Source: Sporodiniella umbellata (Eukaryota; Mucoromycota; Mucoromycetes; Mucorales; Rhizopodaceae). Taken from it: a DNA stretch of 64,000 bases. The DNA lies in contig JAIXMR010000036.1 of assembly GCA_025677835.1 (NCBI GenBank), positions 1-64,000 of the forward strand. The letters are read 5' to 3'. A program made the position numbers and the translations under genes. This document shows positions 4,408 to 59,589 of the stretch, one piece after another (the stretch's first letter is position 1; each line of letters opens with the position of its first letter). The notes beneath the pieces were generated by a model. The model was not told where the DNA came from and searched no databases. It worked only from the letters and a program-made list of their open reading frames with translations.

Positions 4408-5505
4408 ATGTTCAATGAGTCTAAAAGACAATCAACTTCATCAGAATCTTCTCCTAGTGCACGCCTTAAAATATCAAGTATATGGGATGAAGTTACACTT
4501 AGTCATTTGAACATCAAGGCACTTTATCAATTCATTAAAACTCGAGGAAATGTTACAGAGCATAACGATGAAGGTTATAGCTTACTTTACCTTGCTGCAC
4601 ACAACAACAGTCTTGAGGCTTTACGCATGCTCTTGTTACAACCTGGTATAGAGACCAACGCTACTAATGGACCTCATTTTGAACTTGCATTACATGCTGC
4701 CTGCTCCCAAGGTCATTCTGAGGCAGTTGAAATCCTGATCGAAAACGGTTCTCCTCTAGATAATGTTGATGAACTAGGCCATACTCCTCTAATGAATGCA
4801 ATATTTTCAAAGTCGGAAGAGTGTGTTAAAATGATTTTGGAGCATGGCGTTAACACATCCAAAGTAGATAACGGAGGCAATTCGCTTCTTCATCTAGTGG
4901 CAAGTAACAATGTACCTCAGGTGGTGCCATTGCTTGTGGAAAACAATGTACCAATAGATGGACATAATGCTCGCGGGCTCTCGCCACTAGCAGTTGCCAT
5001 TAGTTACGGTCACAAAGAAACAGCCTTGGCTTTAATCAATGCAGGTGCTGATATAAATGGCAAAACGCGGTTAGGAACCGTACTCCACTATGCTGTTACC
5101 TGGAATAGATTAGAGATCATTCAAAAACTGATTGAATGCAGCTGTAACGTACAAGTTTTGAATGCGATGGAGGAAACGCCTCTTTATGTGGCTGTTCAGC
5201 AGCGCAAGATTGATCTCGTGAAATGTTTAGTGGAGCAAGCGAAAGCCGATCCGTGTTTTCCGAATGGTGCCAATATTTCATTACTTTATGCGGCAAGTCA
5301 TGGTTACACAGAAATATGTGAAATCGTTCTATCTCCAAACACAACACCATATTTTATCCAAACGGCTGCTAAAATGAGCGCTTCTGGAGGCTATGTTTTA
5401 ACAGAAAAGTTTTTGCAAAGAAAGTATGAAGAGTTTGTAAAGTCAAAAGCTGTTGACGAGGTGACATTTGACTCGCTGATAAAAACGTTTAGTGATGAAG
5501 AATAA
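4408..5505 (+). CDS. ankyrin-repeat protein, 365 aa
   Basis: Single-exon gene. The N-terminus is short, Ser-rich and probably disordered (about residues 1-22). After a helical lead-in, the protein is a row of ankyrin repeats from about residue 50 to 300. The repeats show the usual G-x-T/S-x-L-h-x-A core, for example GYSLLYLAAHNN, ELALHAACSQGH, GHTPLMNAI, GNSLLHLVASNN, RGLSPLAVAISYGH and GTVLHYAV. The C-terminal 60 residues carry no repeat. Ankyrin stacks bind other proteins; no catalytic or membrane domain is attached, so the partner and process cannot be named. The ATG follows a long T tract, a common arrangement in this window. The next gene, RPL35, is in the same direction. Confidence 0.9.
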   Translation: MFNESKRQSTSSESSPSARLKISSIWDEVTLSHLNIKALYQFIKTRGNVTEHNDEGYSLLYLAAHNNSLEALRMLLLQPGIETNATNGPHFELALHAACSQGHSEAVEILIENGSPLDNVDELGHTPLMNAIFSKSEECVKMILEHGVNTSKVDNGGNSLLHLVASNNVPQVVPLLVENNVPIDGHNARGLSPLAVAISYGHKETALALINAGADINGKTRLGTVLHYAVTWNRLEIIQKLIECSCNVQVLNAMEETPLYVAVQQRKIDLVKCLVEQAKADPCFPNGANISLLYAASHGYTEICEIVLSPNTTPYFIQTAAKMSASGGYVLTEKFLQRKYEEFVKSKAVDEVTFDSLIKTFSDEE

Positions 5506-7770: not shown

Positions 7771-9747
7771 TTAACGGAACCGAAGATAAAAATTCACAAC
7801 TAGTGCACCAACTACAAGTACACAGAGAACAGCTGGACCCCATAGGTCATCGTAACGCCCTACAATTTGTCGATTAATCATATAGGCGCGCTTTTCAAAT
7901 TGATACAAAGCGTAAATAGCAACTGCAGCCGCAATGCTAATGAATAAGGCACCTGCAATGCGAGAAACCTTATCGCCAAAATTTAGCAAGTTGAGAGCGA
8001 CCGTTAAAAGCAGAGCACAGAACTGAAGCCACGAAATGAATGTCCGTTCGTTTGAAAAAAAAACTTTGGGCTCTACTTTTACTTTTTTGACAGGAATCAC
8101 TGCATTAGGGTTGTTGGGGTCTTTAACATACATATTTGCGCTTTCGAAAGGTCTTCCAACATTCAAGCGAATATCACCTCTGGTGAAAATAATGTCCTCA
8201 CCTAGCGTATCTCCTTCTTTCTTTTCAGTTCGTTTGAGTGGGCCATAGTTCAGAGGGTCCTCCCCTTTAGAAACTAGGGTGGACTTCATTCGATGTGGCC
8301 GATTTTCCCAGTCGTTCACTGACTTGTTTCTATCGAGCGTAACCCTGTCCAGCTTTTCTGGACCTTTATTAGTCAAATCTATGCGCTGCTGCTCTGTTTC
8401 AACTGCACGGGAGTATTGGCCATCTAATAAAGGTTTGAAAGATTTGCTACGACTCAGACCAAACTTTGTAGGGGGTTTCCGAATATCAATCTCCATTTCT
8501 GACAACCACCAAGGAAGTAAAGGTAATTGGTCACGGAAAAGATAAGAGACACCATGTAGGTATTTAGAAAATCGAGGAACCTCATGAACTAAATGAGATT
8601 TTAGCAGATTCTTTAACCACTCTGGAGAGCCTTCTAAATGGGCCTCTAAGATAGCATAAGGGAAACGCAGTATCTCTGTTTCTGGAAGATCAAAAGGGTA
8701 TTCTGCAGGACGTTGCCATTCGCCAGAAGCTCTGCGTCTAGACCGTAAAAAGTTATCTTCGCGGATAAATGTTAGCTCGCTGTCCAAAGTTACTTGATTG
8801 TCTCCAAATGTTGTTCGATGATAAAAAACGCGGCATACTGGCTCGACTCCTTGAAATTCCTTTTGAAGTTCACTGGCTCCTTTCGGAGTATATGCTCCTA
8901 CCAAAAAAGGATATACATCCTTGTGGTCCAGTTGGATTTTTAATGACCCTTTTTCGGCCGATAACGTGGTTTCCGTACCGTGGGTTACTAGCCGAATAGC
9001 CTCTGCGCCATCGTCTCTTTGCAGGAGGCTGGTATATTTTCCAAATTGGGAGCTATCTAAATAAACAATAGAAATAGAAGGCTGTTCAAATCCAGGGGTG
9101 TCCATAAGCACAGGAAGGTGAAGCATAAGAATAGACCTGACTTCAGTTATATTGTCAGGGTGCACCCAATATCGTGTTGTTTCTTCTTTTTCTTCACGGT
9201 CGTCAAATGGGCCAAGATCCTTATTGGGTTGGCCACGACGCTTACAGAGATCATGCAATGCCGAAATAAAAGCCAATGCAAGGTCCAAACGCTGATTATC
9301 CAAAGGTTTGGCACGAAGAGAGACAATAAAGGATTGCTGAAGATCCAAATGTGTATATTTATCGTGCTTTTTTAAAATTTTTTGAAATCCAGTATAGTTA
9401 AGCCGAGTGAATTGGGCAAGGTCATTGACATCAAACAGCGTTTCAGTCAGTGCGTCCTCCATCAATTTCCAGTTTTCGTCTGTAGACCAATTGGTTCCTT
9501 TAAAGGTTTGAATTGTTCTTTCGCAATAGTTGATGCGAGATTCGATTTCAGAGAGTTTGGCGGTAACAAAATCATATACTTTCGAAAGTTCGTTTTCCAG
9601 TATTCTTCTGAACGATTGCTCGTCTTGCTGATTCCATACATGATCCAATTGTCTAGATTTTAGGTCCTTTTTAAGCGTTTCGTAAGATATGTATGATAGT
9701 TTCCATGGCGGAAATATTTCTTTTTGTAAATGCTCCCCAAACTTCAT
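7771..9747 (-). CDS. SPX-VTC protein (VTC2/3-like), 658 aa
   Basis: Subunit of the vacuolar transporter chaperone complex, which makes polyphosphate and moves it into the vacuole. I start at the ATG giving MKFGEHLQKE; a farther upstream ATG adds only 15 non-family residues. Order: SPX domain (1 to about 145) with the inositol-pyrophosphate-binding residues Y22, K26 and the cluster K123, K126, K127, K130; VTC tunnel domain (about 193-470) with WVHPDN, TFGDNQVTLDSELTFIRED and RFSKYLHG; an S/T/K-rich linker; and a C-terminal DUF202-type part with three membrane segments. In the catalytic subunit Vtc4 the RxRWYG motif carries two catalytic arginines; here the aligned stretch reads IRLVTHG (about 251-257), so the second arginine and the WY are gone. 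I infer an accessory, non-catalytic subunit. A shorter paralogue lies upstream on the same strand. Confidence 0.9.
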   Translation of the reverse strand: MKFGEHLQKEIFPPWKLSYISYETLKKDLKSRQLDHVWNQQDEQSFRRILENELSKVYDFVTAKLSEIESRINYCERTIQTFKGTNWSTDENWKLMEDALTETLFDVNDLAQFTRLNYTGFQKILKKHDKYTHLDLQQSFIVSLRAKPLDNQRLDLALAFISALHDLCKRRGQPNKDLGPFDDREEKEETTRYWVHPDNITEVRSILMLHLPVLMDTPGFEQPSISIVYLDSSQFGKYTSLLQRDDGAEAIRLVTHGTETTLSAEKGSLKIQLDHKDVYPFLVGAYTPKGASELQKEFQGVEPVCRVFYHRTTFGDNQVTLDSELTFIREDNFLRSRRRASGEWQRPAEYPFDLPETEILRFPYAILEAHLEGSPEWLKNLLKSHLVHEVPRFSKYLHGVSYLFRDQLPLLPWWLSEMEIDIRKPPTKFGLSRSKSFKPLLDGQYSRAVETEQQRIDLTNKGPEKLDRVTLDRNKSVNDWENRPHRMKSTLVSKGEDPLNYGPLKRTEKKEGDTLGEDIIFTRGDIRLNVGRPFESANMYVKDPNNPNAVIPVKKVKVEPKVFFSNERTFISWLQFCALLLTVALNLLNFGDKVSRIAGALFISIAAAVAIYALYQFEKRAYMINRQIVGRYDDLWGPAVLCVLVVGALVVNFYLRFR

Positions 9748-11273
9748 TTGAATAGAAGAAAAAAGGAAGGGAAAAAAATTGATAATTACCAACTGATCAA
9801 CGATTATAAATAGTCAGGGAAAATAAGTCTTTGGAAGCCAGCAAAACTCGATTACCCAATAGAGTATTTCAACTTGAGAAGGAAAACGGGGTTCTTTCCT
9901 TCCTTTAAATGTTACACCAAGGTTAAACCAATTATAACTCACCAAATTCATCAGGGGTTAATTCATCTTTAGTAGCTACTTAATTCGCAGCATCTTAAAA
10001 TACTACTAGATGACTTTTTCCTACTTTTTAAATGGCTAAAATTGAATGCCATGGATTATCGCTTCACATTCATCTTCAAAATTGACTACTTGTACATATA
10101 AATGTTCAGATTGAGGTTGATTTCTTAACGTTCGAATTCTGGTATTCACTTTTTTTTATTTGAAAGCCTAAAGCTTATTAAAATACCTTCACTTTATTAA
10201 ACGGTTAGTGGAACAATACTATAATTCTGTCTGCCGAGGTTCAGAGCAAAAAAGACTCTTGAAAAGTCAATGGCCTCTACATGGTATCAAAACTATTAAC
10301 AGGAGATTTAAAAGACAATAATTTGGAACCTACAATTTTCTCAAAAGTCTCCAGTCTGCTGTAGCTAAAATAGTTTTGCCAGACTTTAATGAATTTAGAG
10401 CTAAAAAAAAAAGCAACCAGTTACAGATTGGCATACAAACTGAGTAAGAGATATTTATTCTTGCCTAATTAAAGGTACATGGTATGCCGTTTTTGTCGTA
10501 GTGTGGCGAAACTTTCAATGTACGGTTCTCCAATTCTTTTGTACCATCCTTCTATAGTAAAGAATTTGGACGTTCGCACATCCTTTAGTATTCCTTTTAT
10601 CGCGTTTGAGGCATTTAGGTTGTATACTAAATCAAAACTCGGCGGCAGCACAAACAGTACAACTACAGTATACTTCAGCTTCAATTCAATAGCAAATAAC
10701 AAAAAAAAAAAAGCTTCAATCAACTTAAGCTAACCACGGTTCTAAATAGTTTGCTTGAACATGCACTCATAAAAAAAAAGAAGTGGGTCATTGCTATAAG
10801 GTGCTGAAACTTGCCCAGTCTGTGTAAAACTATATTTCTTTGTACCAAAGGTATCAATCGAACGAAGTATGAAACATGTACCATTATATAATTCTATTTT
10901 TAATACAAATGTACACAAAGCATTAAAACTAGCTATACACAGCAAAATTTCTTTGAATTTTTAGAGTTGAACTTCTTGGAAATAAAAGACTAGCTCAGTG
11001 GGACTTTTAATACATTTGTTTGTCTCAGATCAACATGATTCTTTAAAACTATATCCCGTTAAATTGCCCCTGTCTCACGTATATTTTTGAAAAAAAAATT
11101 TGCGCGATTATGCAATATATATTATTAGATAAACCCGGTTACCGATATTTAGACATGGCTTTGAGTTTTATGAATCGTCATTTGTACCGTTGATCCCTAA
11201 ATAATTGTTTCCGTGTATCGGTGCATTGAATCGTAGTACGAAATTAAGCTATCAAGAATAAGCAATTATGTTA
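9748..11273. other. intergenic between the two VTC paralogues
   Basis: Promoter side of the 658-aa VTC gene and 3' flank of the 451-aa paralogue. Short open frames near 10.47-10.95 kb on both strands are low-complexity or mirror images of each other and show no family resemblance. Nothing else recognised. Confidence 0.5.
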
Positions 11274-12629
11274 CTATATATAGAGTTGATTTACCATTAA
11301 TGAACCCGTTAACAAGACACATAAAAACACAGGGCCAAAGGCGTCATCAAACCTCAAGTGAGGCTTATTTAGTATTCTATGGGCTCTCCATCGAAAAAAT
11401 CCAAAAGAATATATTGCAAATATGAAAGCAATGGCAAAGAAAACAATTCCTACTGTACGATTTACATTATCTCCGAAGTTTAACAAAGTCACTGCTACAT
11501 TTAACAAAGTTGAAGCAAAATGAAGCCAATGAATAAAAGTCCGCTCGTTGGCCAAAAAAACTTTTGGCTCGATAGTGCTCGTTTTTTTCTTCTTTTCCTG
11601 CTGCTGTTCATCAGAAGTGGGTTCTTCAACTTTTGTTCCTATTGAAGCTTCTTCTAGATTTATGGTTTCTGTAAGGTTAAATGGAGTAACAACAGGAAAA
11701 CAAGGCTCGTAAGGCTGCAATGGACTACTCCATTTAGTATGTCTCAAAGCTTTGTGTTGAAGCTGATATTCAAGATAGCCTATATTGTCTGTTTTGTGTT
11801 CGAACATCGGATGATTTATCCACCATGGCATAAGTGGACACTTCCAAAAATAGCAAACGCCTTGAAGGTATTTTGAAAACCGCGGCACTTCTTCTATCCA
11901 CCTTGATTCTACGAGCTTTATTAACCACTGTGGAGGATCTTGAAGACTAAGAACCGCATATGGAAAGTGCCATTTTTCCGAAGTGGTTGGTCTAGAAAAC
12001 TCTATTTGCATATCTAGTGTGACATATGAGCCAAAAATAACGCGAGAGTAGTTTACTTGAAGAGCGGGTATTAGTCCTTTTCCTGGACGTTTGATTGGCC
12101 TTATATTAGGATCATATTGAAGACGAGACTTATAGAATTCAAAAGTGGGTGTATCATAATAGGTATCGTTCATTTCTTCGGGATATGAAGGGGATAAATG
12201 AAACAGCAGGTTGGCCCTAAGTTCTGTAAGATGATCAGGATGTATCCAAAAAGTAGCTTTGTTGATGGGAGGAGGTTCTAGCAGCCGACTAATTTTTATC
12301 AGAGAAGAATTGAATCTTTGTGTGTCTAGAGCCTGAATATTTATAATAAAAGGCTCAAAGGCCAAATAGTTCAAGCGAGTATACCACGACAGTTCATTGA
12401 GGTCTAAGAGAATGTTGGATACCTCGGATTTTTCTTGGTTTCCTCTTTGACTGTAAGAGATCCTTGAATCTAGCTCACGTTGTTTTTTTGCAATAAATCT
12501 AGTGACTCTTTCTAACTCTAAAACGACATCTGTTTCTGATCGATCTAAAGAATCGAGCTTATTTAAACAAACATACTCGTTTCTCCATGGCTGATAGATA
12601 TTTTGTTCAAAAGCTTTCTTGAAACTCAT
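11274..12629 (-). CDS. degenerate SPX-VTC paralogue, 451 aa
   Basis: Single-exon paralogue of the VTC gene downstream, much shorter (451 against 658 aa). I start at MSFKKAFEQN, which aligns with MKFGEHLQKE of the neighbour; the upstream ATG adds a Phe/Lys-rich stretch unlike the family. The fold markers remain: FxxxIYxPWR at the start, WIHPDHLTELRANLL, VTLDMQIEF, FPYAVL, VPRFSKYLQG, and a C-terminal DUF202-like part with three membrane segments (about 365-451). Ligand sites are lost. SPX positions Y22 and K26 are L22 and D26, and the four-lysine cluster is replaced by FEPFIINIQA. The strands with the RxRWYG and ERKTH motifs are deleted. The metal-binding Glu after FPYAVL is Ser. It is intact as a reading frame, so I read it as a pseudoenzyme that may still assemble with other VTC subunits rather than a pseudogene. 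Confidence 0.85.
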   Translation of the reverse strand: MSFKKAFEQNIYQPWRNEYVCLNKLDSLDRSETDVVLELERVTRFIAKKQRELDSRISYSQRGNQEKSEVSNILLDLNELSWYTRLNYLAFEPFIINIQALDTQRFNSSLIKISRLLEPPPINKATFWIHPDHLTELRANLLFHLSPSYPEEMNDTYYDTPTFEFYKSRLQYDPNIRPIKRPGKGLIPALQVNYSRVIFGSYVTLDMQIEFSRPTTSEKWHFPYAVLSLQDPPQWLIKLVESRWIEEVPRFSKYLQGVCYFWKCPLMPWWINHPMFEHKTDNIGYLEYQLQHKALRHTKWSSPLQPYEPCFPVVTPFNLTETINLEEASIGTKVEEPTSDEQQQEKKKKTSTIEPKVFLANERTFIHWLHFASTLLNVAVTLLNFGDNVNRTVGIVFFAIAFIFAIYSFGFFRWRAHRILNKPHLRFDDAFGPVFLCVLLTGSLMVNQLYI

Positions 12630-13481
12630 TGTTTTTTGTTTTTTTTTAAGAAAAAAAAGAAAAAGAAAAAACAAAGGTACGATTAAGCACTTGTCTGCAT
12701 CTATTATAAGGGACTAACTCCGGCCTTACCCCTCTTGCCCTATCTCATCAATGCCATTGCTCAGATTGCCTGTGTAAAGCATCCATTTGTAAACAAAGCA
12801 TTGAACAGTTTCTTAATAGTTTAGCTATTGTCTATCAAAATATCACTCAACAGTTATTTGTACAAGTATTTACTTTAGGCCTCTCGGACAGATTTTATGT
12901 TGCTGAAGTAATCGTCAGTTTAGATTAGAATAACTTTTTATCCTTTTTTTATAGCTTAAAGGTAATATAAAACTTTGATTCAATTTGTATGCACAGAGTT
13001 TGAAACTGCTCAACGAACGGCTATATACTTTTAACAAAAATAAAAACAAAAAGAAACCAAAATAACTGGCTTGGTGGAGTTTTGGTTTTTGACAAGTATA
13101 GCGATTTAGTCTTACTGGCATACTGTAGCACAGAGCATGCTCTTGTTGTGTGTAGCTACCAGAGCTAATATTTCAATCAATAACCTTTGTTTGTCGTTGA
13201 TGTTTATGCCAAATAGTCTATTCTTCTCCAATTGGAAGATCTTCGCTAAGAATTTTAGCCCCCTGAGAAAACTAGGACCCACTGATATTCTAAAGTAGTA
13301 GTAAAACAGAAGTATAGTCGCTCATTAGAAAAGAAAAAAGCAAAAAGAACTATTATTTTACAGTAATTTTTCGCTGATTGTACACTTGTTTCAGACGATA
13401 TACAGCTCTTCAAACAAATTGTACTTGAAGAAGTTTACAGTGGTTTTCGTATTTCCTCAGATATTTTTATAGATTTATTAA
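12630..13481. other. intergenic between VTC paralogue and cyclase gene
   Basis: Upstream flank of the 451-aa VTC gene and 3' flank of the cyclase gene, all on the minus strand. No protein-like frame or repeat recognised. Confidence 0.5.
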
Positions 13482-16400
13482 TTATAGTTGTATATTCAAA
13501 TCATCAGGGAAAACTCGATAGTGTAAACGTTCTGGATCTGGATTACAATATGTATCGGCTGGAATTCCTAGCAGATCTAGGTCAGCGGAAGCTCTTTTTG
13601 TCCAGTTTATTCTATCTTCAGCAGTGAAGGCGAACTTTCCTAAGTTCGCCCAATAGAAAGCTTTAAGAAACTTGATTTCATGAATAAAGTGCATTTCAAA
13701 GATCCCGTGACGTAAAACCTTCATATATGTTACTGTATTAAATCTCTTCGTATTTTGTAGCTTTTTACCATGTATCCTTCAACTATACGTCTTGTAGCTA
13801 TATATGGAAGAGCTCTTGCTAGATATAGGCAAGGCTGCGTAAACTCCCAAAACTTGACAAGTTGAAAAGCCCGATTGAGCCTAGACAATCCCAAAATAAA
13901 CTTTTCATAATTTTTGATATCGCCATCTGCAACCAGATCGATTTTTCCATCTTCCACCATAGAGTATAAACCCATGGTCGCAAATATAAGTCCAAATATT
14001 GGAAAGATATTTGCTAAAATACGTTTTAAAATTTAGAGTGCGCATTTTTTTTTTAAAGAAAAAAGAAAGAAAAACTTACACGTAACAGTTAGAGAGGGAA
14101 GAACGCTTACTAGCTTTTGAATATGTCGTGTTGCTAAATCGTAAACATGATTTCTGGCATAGTAACAAACCAGAGTACCATGTATAGCTATTCTATTATA
14201 GCTAGCTGCCTCAGAAGTATATGCTTCCAGTAAGGCCACGTATGGTCCACAGTCTGCCATACGGTCCATTACAAGAGCGTTGGCGATGTTGTAAACACCT
14301 AACCAAACTTCAGCTTCGTAATCGCTGTTAGAATGTGCTGTATCAGCCATTTGCTTTAACAGCTCTATATCAATAGAAGAGCTGCTAAACGTGCCCTCAA
14401 AAATCCGCATGGTTACAATTAGCCCTACCGACATATAAAAGGATTGGCAGTCTGTCACTATGCCAAGAGTCTTTGCTTCGTCCGTGACCTGATACAATAA
14501 ATTTCTAGCACTACTAAATTTTCCGGCAGCAAAGCACAGTGAAGCGCACATTGACAGAGTGTCTGTATTAGTCTTCATATTGTTCATAAGCTTGAGGGCT
14601 TTTGAAATGTAATAGATACTGTAACTTTTACGATCGTTCAACCAAAATAACAGAGCATTTCTCGCCAAAAATAGACTATAATTTGGACCTGCGTCATCCA
14701 ACTGCTCACAGGCATTTAGACCGATTAAACATGCATATGTACAGCCTTTTCCGTTTCCTGTATAATAATATATGTTGAACAGGTTTTCCATAATTTCTAT
14801 AACACGTCGAATACGGTCTTTCTGAGAGGCAGAACTGGGCTCTCTATCATAGTATTTGAAATGTCTATGGCAATATTGGGTAAACCTGTTTGCCCAAAGC
14901 TTATAAATGAATCTAGGTTGTGTTTTTGGCCATGGGTCCCCAAGAATCTCTAGAGCTTTGTGCAAAAACAACTCTCCTTCTGGAAGTTTTGTTCTCATAG
15001 TGAAGCATATACCTAAACGTCGATATATATCGCTCAAGTGCATATCCCCAAACTGCTCTTCGAGATTTTTTTGCTCTAGTATTTTGACAATCATTTGAAG
15101 ATTTGCTGTAGCTTCTGGTAATGAGTAGTTTAACATGTTTTGATCTGCCAGAGCTTCTAAATAATAAAGTTGTTTTCCAATAGCATCAGTTTGTAAGTAG
15201 TGCCTGGCAATCTTGGGTACAATCTGGGGGTGATTTCCCCGGCTTAGTTGGGATTCATAGTATTTTGCTAATAAGCGATGAAGAGAGATACGAGTTTCGT
15301 AAGACACCATATCGTATATGCTTTGAGGAATGGTTATATGAGTGAAGCAGTATAGATCCGCAGAATTCTCTAGAGAGCCTCCAGCAATGTGTTTGTCCAA
15401 GAAATTATAGACATCAAAGCTGATTAGCTTCTTTTGAATTTCGTCTTGATCTTTATCTTGAAAAATGGCATTATTTGGCTTTGCTACTGATCCAACCTCA
15501 TATACTGTAAAAAACTGATCAAGACAGGCTGCAATCTTTTACATGTTGGTATATGTAAAATTTTGAGTAAAAAGCTTTTTTCTGGAAGCTTAAACTTTCT
15601 TACGGTTAAGAATTCTTGGTAGCTAGGATCTAATCTGTCAAACTGCATTTTAATAATTCTTTTGTAGTCAAAATTTCCCAAAAGGTCCTCGAGGTCGAAA
15701 GAGCTTCCGCTTGGAACTAGCTTCCCTTGAACGACTGTGACATGGTTAAAATCTTTTAAAATGATAGACATATTTCTAGAAATAAAAATCAATATAACGC
15801 TTTAACTTCCATGACTTACTTAACATATAGTGGATTCCCTCCAGTGCGTTTCTATATACACCTGAGTACTCTGTTTTGTGTGTATTCATATGCGTTTTTT
15901 ATACTTACTTGTACAACTTTAACAATTTCGTTACTGATTTCCACCACACTGCCATCAAAATTTTGCAAGATTATTTCTCCAATCTCGCTTTCTGAAAGCC
16001 CGCTTAAAACTATTTCTTCGTAAGATCCCACGTTTTTGTAGAGCTCAAGAAAAGTCAAGTCGTAATCTCTAACAGGGCGAGTGGCCATGAGTAGCATTAT
16101 TCTCTGGCAGTGCTCGTGAATGTGTTGTAGGATGTTTAGAGAGGCAGAATCAGCCCCTGATAAAAATTAGTAAGCTGTTTTGGATCGTTATACTCACATT
16201 GAACGTCGTCACACATGAAAACCACACCAACATGCTTTGAAGCGTAGTGCGCCATTCGAGTAATTACTCCTGTTAGTAGTATATCTCTAGCTCTACCATC
16301 TAACAGTCTTGTGTATCTGTTTTCTTCAATATCGTTCAATTTTGTAAAAACAGCTTTAAACAGAGGTATATATCCCTCTTCTTCTCCACATTTGCAAAGA

Positions 16401-19397
16401 CATCGCTTAATCAGATTAAACATCTCATTATTGGAATCAGATTGTCCTAAATTAACATTGATCAAGGAGCCTGGAATAGATGTATGAGACTCTAGTCGCC
16501 TAAACCAGTCTTTGCTCCTAATGAAGTTTGAAGACACAGAAGCAGACGAAGGCGTGGAGTTAGTGGAGTTTCCTGTATCTTCTAAAGGATAGCTCTGGCT
16601 TGGACTAGCTAAGCTTTGATTGCTGCTGCTAAAAGTGCTGTTTGAATAGTGCTTTGCTTTTAGAGTTGATTTGCATGGGATGCTTTCGGAATCAATAAGC
16701 TCTAGTAGGTTCATCATGATATTTTTTAACAAATAGTATTTGCTCCCTTTTTCAACTGAAAAGATGTTTAGTTTTTAATTTGGGTTTACTATTTTTTGCT
16801 TTTCTTACCTTCTGTAGAAGAAGACCAGCTTTTTTTAGTGTTATAATTATAATATCAATAAAGGAAATATTTCAAAATCTAAATCAATAAAAGCTATCTC
16901 AGATTACTGAGTTACTTACCAGCTCATAACATCATGTGAAGCAATTGTCCTATGAAGCTTGCCACAGAAAAAACTTTTCCCAGTGCCAGAGGGGCCAGAT
17001 ACTACTAAAACATGATGATTTGGGGTTTCAAACCAGTTATCTATGAATTCGGTTGCTTTTTCCATTTCAAGTCTATAGCCAATAAATCCACTAGATTTTT
17101 CAACGTTTAATAGGGATATTCGCTTATCTCTTTCTGGCGAAATAAATTCTTGTATACTGTATATTTGTACGGGCTTAACTTTTCCTTTGACTAGATTTTC
17201 TCCTAAATCTTCAAAAGAACAAAGTCCACCAATTTGCTTTTTTGTTTCCTGATCGCACACAACATTCTTTTTGGAAAAGTGAAACTTAAGCATACGAACA
17301 GCAATCACAATTGTATCTCCTGCTATGCTTGCGTCTCTCCTGTAAGGACTATCGTATGGCAATATAGCAGTGAATATAGTTCCAGTCGACAGTGATATGG
17401 CAAAATCGTCATAACCGCGATCACATAGAGTATCCCTGATATTCAGTGCAGCTTTTGCTGCAAATACAGCCTCTCTCTCATGCGACAAAGGAGGTAATCC
17501 GAAAACTGATAGAGTAGTTGCACCTTAAAAAACTAATTTTTTAGAAAAACTTCAATATAAAAGTATTTTTGAACCCAAACCTTTATCATCGATTGCAAAC
17601 TGTTGCAGCATACCTTCGTACTCATACAAAGCGCTAATAATAATTGCGATTATTTCTTGTACTTTTTTTAAGCCTTCTGCATTGGTAACGTCAGTTTTTC
17701 CTAGACTAACAAACATTATTGTAACATCTCGAAACTGGGCAGGAACATTTCCATTGATACTATTTCGCATTCTATAAAGTGCACTTCTACTTAGGTATTT
17801 GCAATAAAATTCGTTACGGTCAGCTGGGATATTCATATAGGAGGTATTTCTAACACGTGGAACAAGAGGATCAATAGATAGTTTTGTAGCTTCTTTTCTT
17901 AGTCCAGGAAGACTTTTTATGTATTCAATATTAGTTTTGCTATTCAGGGGTGTTGTCTTTTTGTGTGATGGTGCTGAGGCATGCTTGAAGGATGGCCCGC
18001 TTGAAAAACCTATGTTTTTTTGTGAAGGAGCGGAATCAACAATGTTTTTTATGACAAAAAACTGTCTTCTTTTTTCAAATGAGAGACTCATCCCTTGATG
18101 CTGAACTACTTCAAAAGCCTCTGGTGTTATGCTGAGTTCCCCTGCCTTCGCCGCCGACAAAGCCTCGTCTAAAGATTCAACTGTGTTCCCTCCAACAGCA
18201 TATTCTAATCTTCCGCGATATTGAATTTTTTCACTCGAATCTCGACTGCCCTCTGCACGCTTTGGAAAAGTAGTATTCAAAAAATTTGGGCCATTCCATT
18301 CTTCTTGATCAATATCGCCCACTATAATGTTCACAACTTCACCACAAGATAAAGCCATATGAAGTTCAAGATCAATTGAGTTACTGTTATCAAAGTTTGA
18401 TGAAGACCCTTCGGTTGCTGCACTTGTTCTTCTACTGTTATTTTTATGTTTTTGGCTTTTTTTTTTCGTGATAAATTTTGAAGCCCAGCTTTTGTTAAAT
18501 ATTGACTTTCTCTTTCTGTTTTGTCTTTCTTCGTTACTGGAAACAAAAGTTTCTGGAATTGATTCTGTTTGGTTTCCATCTTCAAACGGATTCATAGCAT
18601 CATAAATATTAGGACTCATAACTTGGTTTTTTTTTTCGCCAAGGGCCCTGTATTTAGATCTCTCTTCGGCAGTCAAGTAAACTCTGTAATGAGACAGGCG
18701 TGCCAATAGTTGTAGACTGCACTCTATTGCTCTCTTCATCAATATGCTTTTTTGCTTTTCAGATGCTTCGCAGTCTTCAAAGTTGTCTATTAGATTTTTT
18801 CCTTCCGAACTTTGAAAAACCTGAAAGCACACTAAAACAGCATCCCCCAGAAACTTTCGAAAAACTTTAGTTTTTTTTTCTAAAATAAAAAAATCCACTT
18901 ACTTTTACGACATCGCCTCCATAAAATTCTATGATTTGAATACACTATTTGTTTTACAAAAAAAAACAAAAAAAAAATTAGGGAATTTATTGCTTAGCAC
19001 GGCATCAGTACTTCTCCCATATAAGCTCCGATCTCCATAGCAATTGCTTCTGCTCCAGAATCGCCTTTTTCTTGAGCTTTTGTAGTTAACTGTTTGAAGT
19101 TAAAAACATAAAAATGAAGAAGAAAATACTCTTACTGAACTAAAGCCTAATATACTAGTTAGTTTTGTTCCCGAATTCAGAGATTTTAAAAGCTAATCTC
19201 GCTTACCGACAATGTCAACCATTAGTACAACACCAAACTTTGTATGACTGTACGGAACTTTTATGTCTTTGTCGTCTGCATGTAAAACTCTGACATACTA
19301 TTAAAAAAAAAAGTAAATCGTTGATATTTTGCGAGAAGCTTTTATTATTCGCGATTTATTGTGTTACTTTAGAAATGAATGGCGCGATGTTGAACAT
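13482..19397 (-). CDS. ADCY10-like soluble adenylyl cyclase, ~1708 aa, 15 exons
   Basis: Class III nucleotide cyclase of the soluble adenylyl cyclase (sAC/ADCY10) type, which makes cAMP in the cytosol. Exons in coding order: 19368-19397, 19207-19297, 19136-19146, 19012-19089, 18903-18944, 17581-18853, 16920-17523, 16809-16828, 16198-16755, 15909-16156, 15820-15851, 15543-15775, 14080-15504, 13769-14013, 13482-13718. All junctions are GT-AG and keep frame to one stop. Order: cyclase C1 (about 25-330: VDIVGFSS with D38, GGDVVKFLGD with K84 and D88, then a basic Ser-rich insert and RLEYAVGG); C2 (about 430-640: VTIMFVSL, DDKG, DASIAGDTIVIAVRM); a STAND-like ATPase with P-loop GPSGTGKS (about 685), Walker B DDVQWAD (about 900) and KRTGGNPLYV; and a long helical TPR-like tail to 1708. 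Human ADCY10 has the same order and about 1610 aa. The last intron (13719-13768) is the least certain join. Confidence 0.88.
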
Positions 19398-23635: not shown

Positions 23636-24628
23636 TCAGTCGCTTCCTACAATACCGCCCTTGTTTATGCCGACAGCTTTTTCAACCACCTCTCTCATAA
23701 GATCAATCAGAGTACAACAGACGACAACAATATGAGCCTCAAAAGTGTTTGGGTGCTCCACCAAATTGAGAGCGTTTTTGTCAATGATAAGCTTGCCAAG
23801 CTGAATGAGGTAGCCCATCCGATGACTGTCAAACTCTGCAATTACCCGCCATTTCTCGCTTTGGTGTTTTACTTCACAGACAAGGTCATGAGAAAGTAGA
23901 CTGATTCGTTTCCAGCGGATACGATAGTCTTCAAATTCGGTTTCATATGTAAACATGAGATGAGATTTGGTGATGTTCAACATGGGTGAGGCTGCGCCTG
24001 TTTGAATGGCTTCTTCGTTTTCTGTAAAGTCCTTCCACTGTACCGTAATGTCTTTTTTGAAAGCCCTTCTCCGGGTTTCAGCCACCTTGACCTCCTCACC
24101 TTCAAACACACGATAGAGGGTGTTTTGAAAGCCCCAGGAATAAGAGTGGGGCTGAGCTTTTTTGTAGGCCTTTACCTTTGTGCCATCAAAGTAAATATCG
24201 TGCTGTTGAGGCCGTGTCAGAGAAAGTTTACGGATATCATATCGAATCATGTCTTCCATAGGCTTTTTTTTTAATACTTCTAATAAAGCCAATCGACTGC
24301 TATAAGTTGCGTTGCTTCCACCACTGGTGATGCTACTTGCACTTGACATACTCGGTGTAGGTACAGGGAACCCTGTGGTGGATACACTGGTGGTGGGAGG
24401 TGACACGTGAGTGAGAATGCTTGAAGTGGCTGAAGGCTCATCGCTTGTTCTTATGTCAGGTCTTTTGCCATCTACGAAATCTGAACGAACAATCAAATCT
24501 TCCAACACTTCTGCTGGTAAAGAAGTTTGAGGCTCGGTTTCTTCGTCATAAGCATTGGGTTTGTCGTACATTCCTTCATCTATGGTATCTGGTTTTTGAG
24601 TGGGTATGTCATCCAAATCAGGTTTCAT
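23636..24628 (-). CDS. hypothetical protein, 330 aa
   Basis: Single open frame from an ATG, clean to its stop. The first 70 residues are acidic and Pro/Asp-rich; residues about 70-110 are a Ser/Thr/Pro linker. The last 210 residues look like a folded domain rich in beta strands and aromatics (YDIRKLSLTRPQQHDIYFDG, SYSWGFQNTLYRVFEGEEV, ITVQWKDF, RIRWKRISLLSHDLVCEV, WRVIAEFDSHRMGYLIQLGK). The strand-rich pattern with WRVIAEFDSHRMGYLIQLGK near the end reminds me of tubby/LURP-type folds, but I cannot confirm this by eye. No signal peptide or membrane segment. Function not recognised. Confidence 0.7.
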   Translation of the reverse strand: MKPDLDDIPTQKPDTIDEGMYDKPNAYDEETEPQTSLPAEVLEDLIVRSDFVDGKRPDIRTSDEPSATSSILTHVSPPTTSVSTTGFPVPTPSMSSASSITSGGSNATYSSRLALLEVLKKKPMEDMIRYDIRKLSLTRPQQHDIYFDGTKVKAYKKAQPHSYSWGFQNTLYRVFEGEEVKVAETRRRAFKKDITVQWKDFTENEEAIQTGAASPMLNITKSHLMFTYETEFEDYRIRWKRISLLSHDLVCEVKHQSEKWRVIAEFDSHRMGYLIQLGKLIIDKNALNLVEHPNTFEAHIVVVCCTLIDLMREVVEKAVGINKGGIVGSD

Positions 24629-25294
24629 TTGAAGCTCCCTTTTTTTTTTTGGTATATGTATAAAAGGAGAAGAAAAAAGTTGTATTTATAGATATCTGAA
24701 AGACTGAGTCATTTCAAGTAGTGTCTAAGGACTTTGTTTTTATGAGTTTCAAACAAAAAAAGAAATAGAGCGGTAAATTCTATCTCATTTAGGCCATCTT
24801 GCCAAAACGAGAGAAATACTGCAAGTCAAATCAAATAGACCCAAAGATCCTTTTTTTTTTTTTGGCTCAAGACGATTAGAACAAAACGTTATGAAAGCTT
24901 GATTAAAGGTTGTCAACTAAAGTTGTACAGGTACGCCCAAAGAGATTTGATAGTTGTTTAACGAAAGAACAGAATTTAGTACTGACAAAAATTCAAAAAT
25001 TCAAAAAAAAAAACCTTAAAAACAAATATATCTTTCGGGGTACATTCTTTCAGCAGTATAAGCCAAGTATTGATTTTCTCGTGCAGTAAGCTATACTTTT
25101 AAGAATTTTGACAGGTATTTACTTTTGTTGTCACTACAAGAGTTATACCAAAACGTTTCAGTAGCCTGTTACAGGTTTCAATCGTCCGTTAAGACCTTAT
25201 TAGCATAGGAAAATATCCTTTTTTTTTTTTGGCCTACAGCAGCAAACAAAAGCAATCAGGGATTTTTTTCGGGTAAAATTGTTTTGGCAAGAGC
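24629..25294. other. intergenic
   Basis: Poly(T) runs near 24851 and 25219. Upstream region of the 330-aa hypothetical gene; no coding frame recognised. Confidence 0.45.
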
Positions 25295-25656
25295 TTACTT
25301 TATTGGAGACAACAGCATAACGAAGGTATCATCTGGTTTAGACTTGCCCAAAAGCGCTTTAGGTTCATTAGCAGTTTCCGCTAACATCTTGATTGATAAA
25401 GAAGAAAACACACATAGAGAATGGCCATTTTCAAACTTCAACAGGTAGTGCCGTTGCTTTCGTATAGATAACCGGGTTCTACCCAGGCCTACTTGTATTG
25501 TTTTTGTCTTTAATGTGCAACAGAAAGTACAAAAAGGCTTCCTTTTTATTTTTTTATTTTTCAAGTTTGGTTTTTATAGTAGTAACACATCACCAAAGAA
25601 ATACCGGGACCAGAATGTATGTGTAAAAGCACATATTTTCGACTTTTTATTTCCAT
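25295..25656 (-). CDS. possible small hypothetical protein, 91 aa
   Basis: Two exons are proposed: 25594-25656 (MEIKSRKYVLLHIHSGPGIS) and 25295-25507, joined in phase 0 at a gtgatg donor and an acceptor reading attaaag. The second exon is 70 codons of mixed, non-repetitive composition (TIQVGLGRTRLSIRKQRHYL, then LLKFENGHSLCVFSS), unlike random AT-rich DNA. No family recognised. It would be divergent from RTC4 with only 63 bp between the two ATGs, an (ATT)n tract between them. It could also be a 3' exon of a gene whose first exon I have misplaced. Confidence 0.35.
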
Positions 25657-25665
25657 CCTGTTTTC

Positions 25666-25671
<6 letters not shown>

Positions 25672-25696
<25 letters not shown>

Positions 25697-25697
25697 G
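25672..25697. repeat. (ATT)n microsatellite
   Basis: A pure ATT/TTA trinucleotide run directly before the RTC4 start. Confidence 0.85.
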
Positions 25698-25719
25698 TTT
25701 ATTACTTTTTGAGAAAAAG

Positions 25720-26904
25720 ATGCATAAGAGAAACAACAGCATAGTCAATAAGAGAAGCAACAGTATAATCAATCTGTCTCATCGCAAAAGCAAGTTTTCA
25801 GCCAAGCCAGTAACTATTGATGTACCGAAAGATACCAGCTCAGATTGGGTGAATCAACATTACATGGGCTCAGGTCAAGTCCAGAGACGGTATAAACGAA
25901 AGCTGGATCCTTTTCAGGTGCTAGACGACCATGACGATGACTTTCAAAAGAGCAAGAATGCTAAAAGAGAACCAGCGATATCTAGTTTTATTTTACCCAA
26001 CAAAAGAAAGCCAAAGATGATGGAAAAGGACGATAAGAAACAAGTGAATTGTCTACTTCAGTCTGTGGAAGAAATCAAAAGAGAAGTAGGAAAGAAATCG
26101 CAAGCTGAGCAATGTCCTTTTTGCGGTGAGACATTAGAACCTTTGACAGAGATTCTTCGACGCCAATTAGATCGGCTAAAAAGAAAAGATCAGGAGCATC
26201 GCGAACAACAAAAAGAGAAACAGAAACATGAGGATGCTCTTTCGTCCTTTAGCCGGCCTTTGGATCTGATTGTCCACAAGAGGCAGGTATCGGATGTGGA
26301 CCAACACACGTTTTGCAAGCTGCATTGTCGAGAGCTGGTATTGAAACCGCTAGGTCAGCGACGTGGGTACCCAGAATCGATTGATTTTGACAGTATTGAG
26401 AGACGGATGGAGAGTTTGGAAGAGCAGGTAGAGGATGTTATATATGGCAGGATCCAGAGCCAATTCAAAAAGACTGTGATGGCCACGTACGAGGAAGTGG
26501 GTATAGGCAAGGCAAGAAACGCGCTTTATGCTATGCATCGCGTGGATCAATCTATTCCAGGGTATTATGGGCCGCGTGGGGCAGCCGTGATATCACAAGT
26601 ACTTTCCAAAAAGTATCTCTATACCCACCTGTTGACACAAGAAATCACACAACCTCTTTTACCGATAGAATACATACAACAGGTGCTGGTGCCTGAGATA
26701 GGTATCCGTTTAATTCGCCAAGACCTTTTGACCAAACATACAAAAGAAAAACAAAGAGGTGTACTTGATTTCACCCGTCGTATCCCTCCAAACATCACTC
26801 AACTGGCTGAAGAAACGATGGCAGAAAGCAAAGACTATGGAGCTGCTATGTTTCCAATGCTGCAAGAAGAAACCATCACCTTACTCTCAGACAACGAAGA
26901 ATAA
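25720..26904 (+). CDS. RTC4: RTC4-like protein, 394 aa
   Basis: Restriction-of-telomere-capping protein 4 family. The N-terminal 110 residues are basic and low-complexity. A CPFCGE motif (about 140) may form half of a zinc site; a coiled, charged helix (about 152-185) follows. The C-terminal RTC4 domain (about 205-370) has FCKLHCRELVLKPLGQRRGY, PESIDFDSIE, the glycine-rich PGYYGPRGAAVI and VLVPEIGIRLIRQD. In yeast, loss of RTC4 affects cells with uncapped telomeres; the molecular role is not settled. Single exon here. The ATG sits just after the (ATT)n tract and a TTTTTGAGAAAA stretch. Confidence 0.88.
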   Translation: MHKRNNSIVNKRSNSIINLSHRKSKFSAKPVTIDVPKDTSSDWVNQHYMGSGQVQRRYKRKLDPFQVLDDHDDDFQKSKNAKREPAISSFILPNKRKPKMMEKDDKKQVNCLLQSVEEIKREVGKKSQAEQCPFCGETLEPLTEILRRQLDRLKRKDQEHREQQKEKQKHEDALSSFSRPLDLIVHKRQVSDVDQHTFCKLHCRELVLKPLGQRRGYPESIDFDSIERRMESLEEQVEDVIYGRIQSQFKKTVMATYEEVGIGKARNALYAMHRVDQSIPGYYGPRGAAVISQVLSKKYLYTHLLTQEITQPLLPIEYIQQVLVPEIGIRLIRQDLLTKHTKEKQRGVLDFTRRIPPNITQLAEETMAESKDYGAAMFPMLQEETITLLSDNEE

Positions 26905-28135: not shown

Positions 28136-29942
28136 ATGCAGTGTGGCAGTAGACTGTGGAGAGGTAAGCAAGATTTGTAGTAAAGCGTTATTGAGATAGT
28201 GTGTATAGCGGGTATCAGACAAAGAGGGCTAGTGAATCATCTGAGGGGACGTCAATGGATAAGCACCACTCCTGTTGAAAAGAAATCCTCTCGATGGAAG
28301 ACGTTCAAAAATGTGAGTGTTCTAGGCACGGTGGGATTTGTAGGCTATACGTTTTACAGTAAGTAAAGGGATTCAAGCCAGTGAAAAAGCCTAACGCTTG
28401 AAAGCAATGTATGAACATCTACACCCTACGATGTCGCCCATGCCTATGGATCCCAGCAAGAAGACGATTGTTGTTCTGGGCAGTGGATGGGGTGCTACTT
28501 CTTTTCTGAAAGCAATTGATACCACCCTTTACAACGTCATGGTTGTTTCGCCCAGAAACTATTTTTTGTTTACCCCTCTCTTACCCAGCTGTACTGTAGG
28601 TACCTTGGATTTTCGTTCACTGGTTGAACCTATTCGCTTCATTACGCGCCATAAGGCAGCTGAAGTAAAAGTGTACGAGGCTGAATGTACAGAGATTGAT
28701 GCAACTAAGAAGCAAATCACGATTGTAGGTAAAGTCAAAGTGTTTTGTGAAAAAAAAAAAAAAAAAAAAAACATGTGAAATCACACCTTTATAAGATAGC
28801 TCCGAAGTAAAAGGCGAAAGTGCCAGCCGTACGATGCCCTATGATTATCTAGTGGTTGGTGTCGGCGCCCAAAGCCAGACGTTTGGTATTGAAGGTGTAG
28901 CCGAGTACGGCTGTTTTCTGAAAGAGGTCTGGGATGCACAGAAGATCCGATCAAAGCTGATGGACTGCATTGAGACTGCTGCTTTCCCTGGTCAGTCCGA
29001 GAAAGAGATTGAACGTCTGTTGCATATGGTGGTGGTAGGGGGAGGTCCAACGGGTATTGAATATGCAGCTGAGTTGCATGATTTCCTAGTGGATGATTTG
29101 AGTGCTTGGTATCCAGGTAAACAGAATCGCTGTTTTTTTTTTTTTTTTTTTTTTAGCGTGGATTGACCCATGTTTCTTTAGAGCTTGCGGATAAGATCAA
29201 AATCACGCTTGTCGAAGCTATGCCAAACGTGCTTCCTGCTTTTTCCAAGCAGTTGATTGATTACACCGAATCCACCTTCAAAGAACAACGTATTGAGATC
29301 CACACCAAGACCATGGTCAAGCAGGTAAAGGAAAAGGAAATCGTAGTGCAAAAGCCAGACGGGAGCCAAGAGGCCATGCCTTACGGCCTTTTGGTATGGG
29401 CCACAGGCAATACCACACGCCCGCTAGTGAAGGACCTGATTTCCCAATTCCCTCAAGTACAGACCGTCCGTCGTGGCTTGGTCGTAGACGATTGGCTCCG
29501 TATGACGGGTACCGACGATATCTACGCTATTGGTGATTGTACCGCCACCCAATATGCCCCTACGGCCCAAGTAGCTGCACAACAGGGTAAATACCTTGCT
29601 CGTGTCTTTGCCCAGCTCCATGCGACTGAACATCACCAGACCCAGCTTGAGGACACCACCCGGGAAGAGGAAAAACAAAAGATTGAGCGTAAATTGAAAA
29701 AAGCCCAGGACATCAAACCATTCCATTACTCTCACCAGGGCTCGCTGTGTTATATTGGAGCTGATAAGGCCATTGCTGACCTCCCTTTGGGGCCTGGCAA
29801 TCTTTCTTCTGGTGGCGTGGCTACCTATGCTTTCTGGCGTTCGGCTTATGTTTCCAACCTCTTTTCTGCTCGTAATAGATGGCTGGTTATCACCGACTGG
29901 ACCAAAAAGACCTTCTGGGGTCGCGATATTTCTAGAGAATAA
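28136..29942 (+). CDS. alternative (type II) NADH dehydrogenase, 527 aa
   Basis: Rotenone-insensitive NADH:ubiquinone oxidoreductase of the mitochondrial inner membrane (NDE/NDI family). Exons 28136-28163, 28209-28358, 28405-28728, 28796-29116 and 29182-29942 give a frame of 527 aa. The first 60 residues are Arg/Ser-rich with a hydrophobic stretch (SVLGTVGFVGYTFY), a mitochondrial presequence plus possible membrane anchor. FAD fold: VVLGSGWGATSFLK; second dinucleotide fold: VVVGGGPTGIEYAAEL; conserved VVSPRNYFLFTPLLPS, IYAIGDCTA and the family C-terminus FDW-like VITDWTKKTFWGRDISR. No EF-hand insert is present. The N-terminal anchor favours an external (NDE) enzyme but does not prove it. A transposon remnant begins 26 bp after the stop. 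Confidence 0.95.
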
Positions 29943-52868: not shown

Positions 52869-53027
52869 TATAAACCAAGGACCTAAATAAGTTGAATTTT
52901 TATTAAATCAATTTTCTTTTTTTTTTTTTTTTCTTGAAAAAAAAAAGTCTCTTTATATACATTTTTTTGTTCATTCTTTAGCCATCTTTTGATTAATTTA
53001 ATTATATCAGCCAATACATATAAAAAA
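49173..53027. promoter_or_regulatory. long upstream region of homeobox gene
   Basis: 3.9 kb without a supported gene. It is dense in homopolymers (for example 50080-50110 A, 52570-52584 T, 52617-52655 A) and in C/T-rich blocks with C runs (about 51060-51180 and 52480-52580). A (GA)n tract lies at about 51655-51698 and an AACCCTAATT word at 51422. Long pyrimidine-rich leaders are usual before fungal regulatory genes, so I read at least the right half as promoter and 5' UTR; the rest is undetermined. Confidence 0.4.
51655..51698. repeat. (GA)n microsatellite
   Basis: About 44 bp of near-perfect GA dinucleotides following a degenerate GAGT/GAGA-rich stretch. Confidence 0.9.
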
Positions 53028-59466: not shown

Positions 59467-59589
59467 AGCCAAAAGACTTATAAATAGTAGCGATGTTTTT
59501 TTTTTTTTTTGGATTCAAAATCTGTTTCTACAGAATCTAAAATTTTTTTTTTTTTTTAAATTTTTTTTTTTTTTTTTTTTTTTTCTACA

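What the first reader, a model, noticed from the sequence alone, without database searches (positions are those of the whole stretch)
13482..19397. Animal-type soluble adenylyl cyclase (ADCY10 architecture) in a fungus
Dikarya make cAMP with the LRR-containing Cyr1. Here two class III cyclase domains, a STAND-like ATPase and a TPR-like tail lie in the ADCY10 order and at ADCY10 length. The 15-exon model closes frame at 1708 aa, with family motifs rebuilt across most introns (VDIVGFSS, GGDVVKFLGD, DDVQWAD, KRTGGNPLY). It points to a bicarbonate- or Ca2+-tuned cAMP branch in early fungi, or one kept from the opisthokont ancestor.
Basis: partly seen in the sequence, partly recalled or inferred. 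Interest (0 to 1): 0.75.

Follow-up and report, generated by a model that had tools for sequence, protein, structure and literature searches.

The report
Remodelled sAC-type cyclase in early moulds
This is an intact fungal gene for a large protein built and folded like the soluble adenylyl cyclase that makes cAMP in mammalian sperm, but its active site has been rewritten in the same way across a whole branch of moulds, so it may not make cAMP at all.

Summary
The gene is real. On the minus strand at 19397..13482, 15 exons and 14 GT-AG introns give an open frame of 1698 aa (reader: 1708). The window is very likely Sporodiniella umbellata (Mucorales): the deposited protein matches my model at 1047 of 1048 residues, but lacks C1 and most of C2.

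Two parts of the interpretation fail or stay open. 'Animal-type': the closest non-fungal sequences are bacterial proteins of the same layout; descent is unresolved. 'Bicarbonate-tuned cAMP': the family keeps both metal Asp and the catalytic Arg, but the adenine-recognising Lys and Thr are Gln and Ala/Gly/Ser, the NxxxR Asn is Val/Ile in 109 of 109 rows, and the bicarbonate Arg is Asp/Glu in 103 of 108. Best reading: a nucleotide-binding STAND signalling protein with no, weak or altered cyclase activity. Activity was not tested; three Cyr1-type cyclase genes lie elsewhere in the genome.

The parts
13482..19397 (-). Whole gene, 15 exons: 19397-19368, 19297-19207, 19146-19136, 19089-19012, 18944-18903, 18853-17581, 17523-16920, 16828-16809, 16755-16198, 16156-15909, 15851-15820, 15775-15604, 15535-14080, 14013-13769, 13718-13482 (stop included); 1698 aa
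   Evidence: splice model, all introns GT-AG, frame open; 1047 of 1048 residues of deposited S. umbellata protein P0008 identical in three blocks
18071..19246 (-). Cyclase domain C1 (residues about 28-345) with a poorly conserved insert at about 101-243; metal Asp residues 38 and 88
   Evidence: human ADCY10 match, profile match, residue tables; insert identity 0.24-0.46 against 0.59-0.87 for residues 28-100
17159..17815 (-). Cyclase domain C2 (residues about 431-630)
   Evidence: human ADCY10 match 435-624; fold of orthologue P0056
18167..18169 (-). Codon of Asp313, at the place of human Arg176 (bicarbonate switch)
17600..17602 (-). Codon of Gln502, at the place of human Lys334 (adenine recognition)
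17327..17329 (-). Codon of Ser574, at the place of human Thr405 (adenine recognition)
17306..17308 (-). Codon of Val581, at the place of human Asn412 (Asn of NxxxR)
17294..17296 (-). Codon of Arg585, equal to human Arg416 (Arg of NxxxR), kept in 109 of 109 rows with a residue
15365..17056 (-). STAND/AAA_16-type ATPase module (residues about 665-1110): Walker A GPSGTGKS, Walker B VFMCDDVQWAD, KRTGGNPLY
   Evidence: Pfam AAA_16 38.5 bits over cut-off 32.6; motif conservation
13482..15364 (-). Long C-terminal tail (residues about 1111-1698); TPR-like by analogy only, no Pfam TPR hit
   Evidence: matches tails of bacterial sAC-type proteins, best 55 bits; identity 0.57-0.78 within Mucorales, only 0.21-0.28 to Mortierellales

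Best explanation
It is an intact member of a family of soluble-adenylyl-cyclase-type proteins found across Mucoromycota in the wide sense: C1-C2 cyclase pair, STAND ATPase, long tail. Shown: the gene, its domain order, the sAC-type core fold (modelled on an orthologue), the family's spread and the fixed replacement of active-site residues. Inferred: the C1-C2 pair still binds a Mg-nucleotide through its two metal Asp residues and the Arg, but no longer selects adenine in the known way and lacks the Asn of NxxxR, so it makes little or no cAMP. The cyclase pair would then act as a nucleotide-binding regulatory part of a STAND switch: the tail senses a partner or ligand, the ATPase module changes state or assembles, and the signal passes to the nucleotide-bound C1-C2 pair or to partners. 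The three Cyr1-type genes elsewhere in the same genome would supply cAMP.
Against: No activity was measured. Both metal Asp and the Arg are kept, as in active enzymes. Salmon sAC, studied as a working enzyme, has Arg in place of Asn412, and the same Table 1 gives Asn412 a role in product release, not in catalysis itself (PMC12867704, passages). Giving NeoR its NxxxR back did not restore activity (PMC12264004, passage), so the motif alone decides little. A few bacterial relatives have Gln at 334 (5 of 70), Ala at 405 (4 of 70) or His at 144 (7 of 71). Class III cyclases with odd base-recognising residues can be active (recalled: Rv0386, Rv1900c). Window residue 574 is Ser, the mildest of the Thr405 replacements. 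The role of the STAND module and tail is by analogy only, and the tail is poorly conserved to Mortierellales (0.21-0.28).
Confidence: 0.5

Rival explanations
1. An active adenylyl cyclase of sAC type that makes cAMP, set by pH, ATP or a STAND ligand and not by bicarbonate; the replaced residues are tolerated.
For: Metal Asp, Arg416 and Lys95 kept. Non-mammalian animal sACs nearly always have Lys95, Arg176 or both replaced; sea urchin and salmon sAC are pH-controlled, and salmon sAC has Arg at 412 (PMC12867704, passages). Mucor responds to CO2/bicarbonate through an adenylyl cyclase that the passages read do not identify (PMC6989107), and another cyclase-encoding gene beside cyr1 was suggested in M. 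lusitanicus (PMC9226013, passages).
Against: Lys334, Thr405 and Asn412 are replaced together in practically all rows, while bacterial relatives of the same layout keep Asn412 in 70 of 70. Three Cyr1-type cyclases already exist in the genome.
Confidence: 0.26
2. An active cyclase with relaxed or changed base choice, making cGMP or another cyclic nucleotide.
For: Metal Asp and Arg kept, base-recognising pair changed as a fixed set.
Against: Asn of NxxxR also lost; Gln with Ala/Gly/Ser is no recognised guanine pair (recalled).
Confidence: 0.13
3. On origin (independent of function): the family was taken from bacteria by an early ancestor of these fungi, and is not an ADCY10 orthologue kept from the opisthokont ancestor.
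For: Best non-fungal similarity is bacterial (234 bits versus 65-68 for mammals); beyond these fungi only bacterial-type proteins were listed; fungi with Chloroflexota not rejected, p-AU 0.42.
Against: Mammalian ADCY10 is also nearer to bacteria (228 bits) than to fungi, as long branches would give; the best tree puts fungi with mammals, support 88, not starred, with a long-branch warning. Searches are capped searches. No cnidarian, choanoflagellate, amoebozoan or chytrid sequences were in the set.
Confidence: 0.35
4. A chance join of separate genes or a pseudogene.
For: The deposited annotation of this gene is only 1048 aa.
Against: Homologues of 1500-1900 aa in many species; intact frame.
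Confidence: 0.02

Closest known systems
Human soluble adenylyl cyclase ADCY10 (PDB 4clf, 4clw and others)
   Different: Arg176, Lys334, Thr405, Asn412 and Lys144 replaced; long insert in C1; the window's ATPase and tail segments alone gave no phmmer match to the four mammalian ADCY10 rows printed, although the profile alignment runs through to ADCY10 residue 1173.
Bacterial full-length sAC-type proteins (e.g. L005, Anaerolineales; L004, Myxococcales)
   Same: C1-C2-ATPase-tail layout in about 1300-1500 aa; higher scores than mammalian ADCY10 for each segment tried.
   Different: Bacteria keep Asn412 (70 of 70), mostly Lys334 and Thr405.
Fungal Cyr1 adenylyl cyclase
   Same: Class III cyclase fold, same genome (three Cyr1-type loci).
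   Different: Cyr1-type loci have PP2C next to one Guanylate_cyc domain, LRR in one; this gene has a tandem cyclase pair, an AAA_16 module and no such Pfam hits.
Class III adenylyl cyclase-like ATP-binding protein of Pseudomonas aeruginosa (PDB 6yii; title seen only)
   Different: 473 aa in the structure; paper not read.

Membership tests
Soluble adenylyl cyclase (ADCY10 type) | Tandem C1-C2 class III pair | tested here: met
   (fold on orthologue P0056, R. arrhizus)
Soluble adenylyl cyclase (ADCY10 type) | ATPase (AAA/STAND) module and long tail after the cyclase pair | tested here: met
   AAA_16 over cut-off; profile alignment to ADCY10 residue 1173; tail matches bacterial sAC-type tails
Soluble adenylyl cyclase (ADCY10 type) | Two metal-binding Asp in C1 and Arg416 in C2 | tested here: met
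   Asp38, Asp88, Arg585; 77 of 78, 106 of 107, 109 of 109 rows
Soluble adenylyl cyclase (ADCY10 type) | Adenine-recognising Lys334 and Thr405 | tested here: not met
   Gln502 and Ser574; Gln in 105 of 106, Ala/Gly/Ser in 109 of 109
Soluble adenylyl cyclase (ADCY10 type) | Asn412 of the NxxxR motif | tested here: not met
   Val581; Val/Ile in 109 of 109; but salmon sAC also lacks it
Soluble adenylyl cyclase (ADCY10 type) | Bicarbonate site Lys95 plus Arg176 (mammals; not general in animals) | tested here: not met
   Lys84 kept, Asp313 at Arg176; acidic in 103 of 108
Soluble adenylyl cyclase (ADCY10 type) | One clade with animal ADCY10 | tested here: inconclusive
   support 88 with long-branch warning; one alternative tested and not rejected
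Soluble adenylyl cyclase (ADCY10 type) | cAMP formation | not testable with these tools
   needs biochemistry
Fungal Cyr1 | LRR, PP2C-like and single C-terminal cyclase domain | tested here: not met
   Pfam scan shows none of these in this protein, while it finds them in the genome's three Cyr1-type loci (LRR in one of three)
STAND/AAA_16 ATPases | Walker A and B with AAA_16 profile match | tested here: met
   38.5 bits over cut-off 32.6; Walker A Lys in 105 of 105 rows with a residue; Walker B seen

The most novel reading that the evidence does not exclude
Mucoromycota in the wide sense carry an ancient, duplicated family of sAC-derived pseudo-cyclases: STAND signalling proteins whose cyclase pair was turned, before Mucorales and Mortierellales parted, from a cAMP enzyme into a nucleotide-binding switch (or an enzyme for another product) and has been kept so ever since.
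Probability: 0.5. Interest if true: 0.7.

Novelty: new variant of a known kind. Interest (0 to 1): 0.5.

Why it matters
Mucor switches between yeast and hypha through CO2/bicarbonate, cAMP and PKA, and the cyclase involved is not identified in the passages I read. Three sAC-type paralogues lie in this genome, filed elsewhere as hypothetical or guanylate-cyclase-domain proteins and not recognised by Pfam's cyclase model. They are obvious candidates, yet their residues argue against mammalian-style bicarbonate sensing and against ordinary cAMP synthesis. That makes a clear question testable: enzyme, altered enzyme or switch. It also shows that the ADCY10 layout alone is no animal hallmark.

Tried and rejected
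Rejected: 'animal-type' as a shown statement of descent. Rejected: chance or pseudogene. Considered: the second, bicarbonate-side interface as a swapped active site; C2 has Ser where the first metal Asp would be (MFVSLGK) and C1 has no NxxxR, so unlikely; this is my reading of the alignment and was not modelled.

Led nowhere: the search with the Calcarisporiella ATPase and tail listed 29 proteins, 23 of the known fungal family and 6 bacterial-type rows, no other fungi. It recovered only 23 of the 110 fungal rows already known and no Mortierellales, so its silence about other fungi says little. In some searches only the 7991 and 7990 candidates sharing most words were scored; absence from chytrids, Glomeromycotina or Dikarya is weakly shown. 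The search with the ADCY10 core listed only mammals among the best 120 of 878, so other animals are missing from the trees. Leaving mammals or fungi out did not give either a clear bacterial sister. One search found none of my terms in the text held of that paper. Literature: none of the 15 papers listed held 'soluble adenylyl cyclase' together with a Mucoromycota term, and the listings showed none on this family; the library lacks most subscription journals.

Rows dropped: trees used 10 of 110 fungal proteins plus the window, 4 of 120 listed mammalian rows, and 36 of 65 bacterial frames over 1250 aa (77 frames from 78 loci) plus P0111. The scan of bacterial genomes used one peptide pattern; 225 of 360 stretches encode a relative and the best 80 were kept. 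Residue counts leave out rows with a gap; one search used 36 fungal, 8 mammalian and 71 bacterial rows. One search printed the counts given here and then stopped with an error before the Walker B columns. Odd cells: P0062 His at Asp47, P0001 Ser at Asp99, P0097 Gln at Lys95, P0002 Asp at Lys334, five rows neither Asp nor Glu at Arg176 (P0036, P0037, P0060, P0061, P0063); gene-model faults are possible but not checked. The paralogue tree used 66 of the 110 proteins.
Full report
What is there. The minus strand from 19397 to 13482 carries one gene. I rebuilt it from the frames, choosing exon borders by eye and joining them by script: 15 exons, 14 introns all GT-AG, 5097 coding bases with the stop, 1698 aa. 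Exons 3 (11 bases) and 8 (20 bases) are very short, but the residues on both sides match homologues.

Whose genome. Protein P0008 of Sporodiniella umbellata has 1047 of its 1048 residues identical to my model in three blocks, so the window is very likely that species (Mucorales, Rhizopodaceae). The deposited protein starts at my residue 586 and skips stretches, so it lacks C1 and most of C2. The same genome holds two more loci of the family (contigs C126 and C10), which fits P0030 and P0039 being from S. umbellata. Its three Guanylate_cyc loci are all Cyr1-type: PP2C beside Guanylate_cyc in each, LRR in one.

The family. The whole-protein search found 134 proteins; of the 120 listed, the first 110 are fungal by name, except P0006 and P0069, which bear none. 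They belong to Mucorales, Endogonales (Endogone, Bifiguratus), Calcarisporiella and Mortierellales; NCBI places the last two in phyla of their own, so I speak of Mucoromycota in the wide sense. By my recount 106 of 110 cover 70% or more of the window protein. After them comes a drop from 578 to 159 bits and bacterial-type cyclase-ATPase-TPR proteins. A tree of 66 of them plus the window puts the gene in a Mucorales subclade with proteins of Rhizopus, Mucor, Thamnidium, Choanephora, Mycotypha, Benjaminiella and Pilobolus, with other paralogous clades beside it. Source names are mostly 'hypothetical' or 'uncharacterized' protein, some 'Guanylate cyclase domain-containing protein'.

Is it animal-type? 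A scan of bacterial and archaeal genomes kept 78 loci of relatives: 35 Chloroflexota, 15 Pseudomonadota, 13 Myxococcota, the rest others or unassigned, with stop-to-stop frames up to 1674 aa. Against one pool, the window protein scores up to 234 bits with bacteria and 65-68 with the four mammalian ADCY10 rows printed; mammalian ADCY10 scores up to 228 with bacteria. The window's ATPase and tail segments, taken alone, hit bacteria (up to 70 and 55 bits) and none of those four rows. In the tree, fungi (100) and mammals (100) are each one group and join with support 88, with a warning that long branches meet. Without mammals the fungi sit at an unresolved base. Fungi plus Chloroflexota are not rejected, p-AU 0.42. 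Descent is open.

The active site. Human positions follow Table 1 of PMC12867704 (passages) and PMC12250328 (passages): Asp47 and Asp99 bind metals, Lys334 and Thr405 recognise the adenine, Arg416 meets the alpha-phosphate, Asn412 is listed for product release, Lys95 and Arg176 bind bicarbonate, Lys144 receives pyrophosphate. Asn412 and Arg416 are the NxxxR motif of class III cyclases (PMC12264004, passage). In the window Asp47, Asp99, Lys334, Thr405, Asn412, Arg416, Lys95, Arg176 and Lys144 are Asp, Asp, Gln, Ser, Val, Arg, Lys, Asp and His. Over the 110 fungal proteins plus the window, gaps left out: Asp47 77 of 78, Asp99 106 of 107, Lys95 102 of 103, Arg416 109 of 109; Gln at 334 in 105 of 106; at 405 Ala 74, Gly 24, Ser 11; at 412 Val 72, Ile 37; at 144 His 109 of 109; at 176 Asp 64, Glu 39, others 5. 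Bacterial relatives: Asn412 70 of 70, Arg416 70 of 70, Lys334 58 of 70 (Gln in 5), Thr405 59 of 70 (Ala in 4), His at 144 in 7 of 71, Arg176 in only 6 of 71. So Arg176 is not general in the wider family, and PMC12867704 reports Lys95, Arg176 or both replaced in nearly all non-mammalian animal sACs. The joint change of Lys334, Thr405 and Asn412 marks the fungal family, and it is found in both Mortierellales and Mucorales.

What this means. The cyclase cores are conserved (C2 identity 0.76 within the clade, 0.52 to Mortierellales; C1 start 0.87 and 0.59) while inserts fall to 0.22-0.47. The protein is therefore probably under selection and not decaying. The ATPase module and tail are conserved within Mucorales (0.51-0.63 across paralogous clades) but weakly to Mortierellales (0.21-0.34), so their task may differ there. 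Keeping the metal Asp and the Arg suggests that a Mg-nucleotide is still bound; losing the base pair and the Asn suggests that cAMP synthesis is weak, altered or lost. Two results pull the other way: salmon sAC, a pH-controlled enzyme, has Arg for Asn412, and the chytrid subunit NeoR, which lacks NxxxR and shows no activity, did not regain activity when the motif was put back, so the motif alone decides little. Hence 0.50 for the best reading.

Place in the literature. In Mucor, bicarbonate or high CO2 gives yeast growth, explained by an adenylyl cyclase, citing a sAC paper (PMC6989107, passages). PMC9226013 (passages) suggests that a further cyclase gene may take part beside cyr1. I found no paper on this family (listings only, open-licence library).

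Verdict. A real gene, well modelled and rightly recognised as sAC-type. It is a member of a broad and, as far as I found, uncharacterised fungal family, not an oddity of one fungus. Its active site speaks against the bicarbonate-tuned cAMP reading.

Noticed in passing
window 7771-9813 and 11274-12713, minus strand: Two neighbouring VTC-type genes (VTC plus DUF202; the first also SPX), i.e. relatives of the polyphosphate-polymerase complex, next to the cyclase gene.
   Followed up: partly
window 59560-60354, plus strand: Open frame with a WWE domain hit (26.7 bits, cut-off 21.1), a domain better known from animal ubiquitin and PARP proteins (the remark on animals is recalled).
   Followed up: no
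window 52938-53999, plus strand: Homeodomain protein.
   Followed up: no
window 4333-5505, 25627-26904, 29157-29942, plus strand: Ankyrin-repeat protein, RTC4-like domain protein and part of an NDH2-type NADH dehydrogenase.
   Followed up: no
window 23636-24685, minus strand: Open frame of 349 aa with no Pfam match at E 0.001.
   Followed up: no
L001, L002, L003 (own genome): Three Cyr1-type adenylyl cyclase loci in one Mucorales genome.
   Followed up: partly
L051 and L058: Two bacterial sAC-type loci come from MAG records labelled Klebsiella pneumoniae; L051 groups with a Pseudomonadales MAG, so the labels may be wrong.
   Followed up: no
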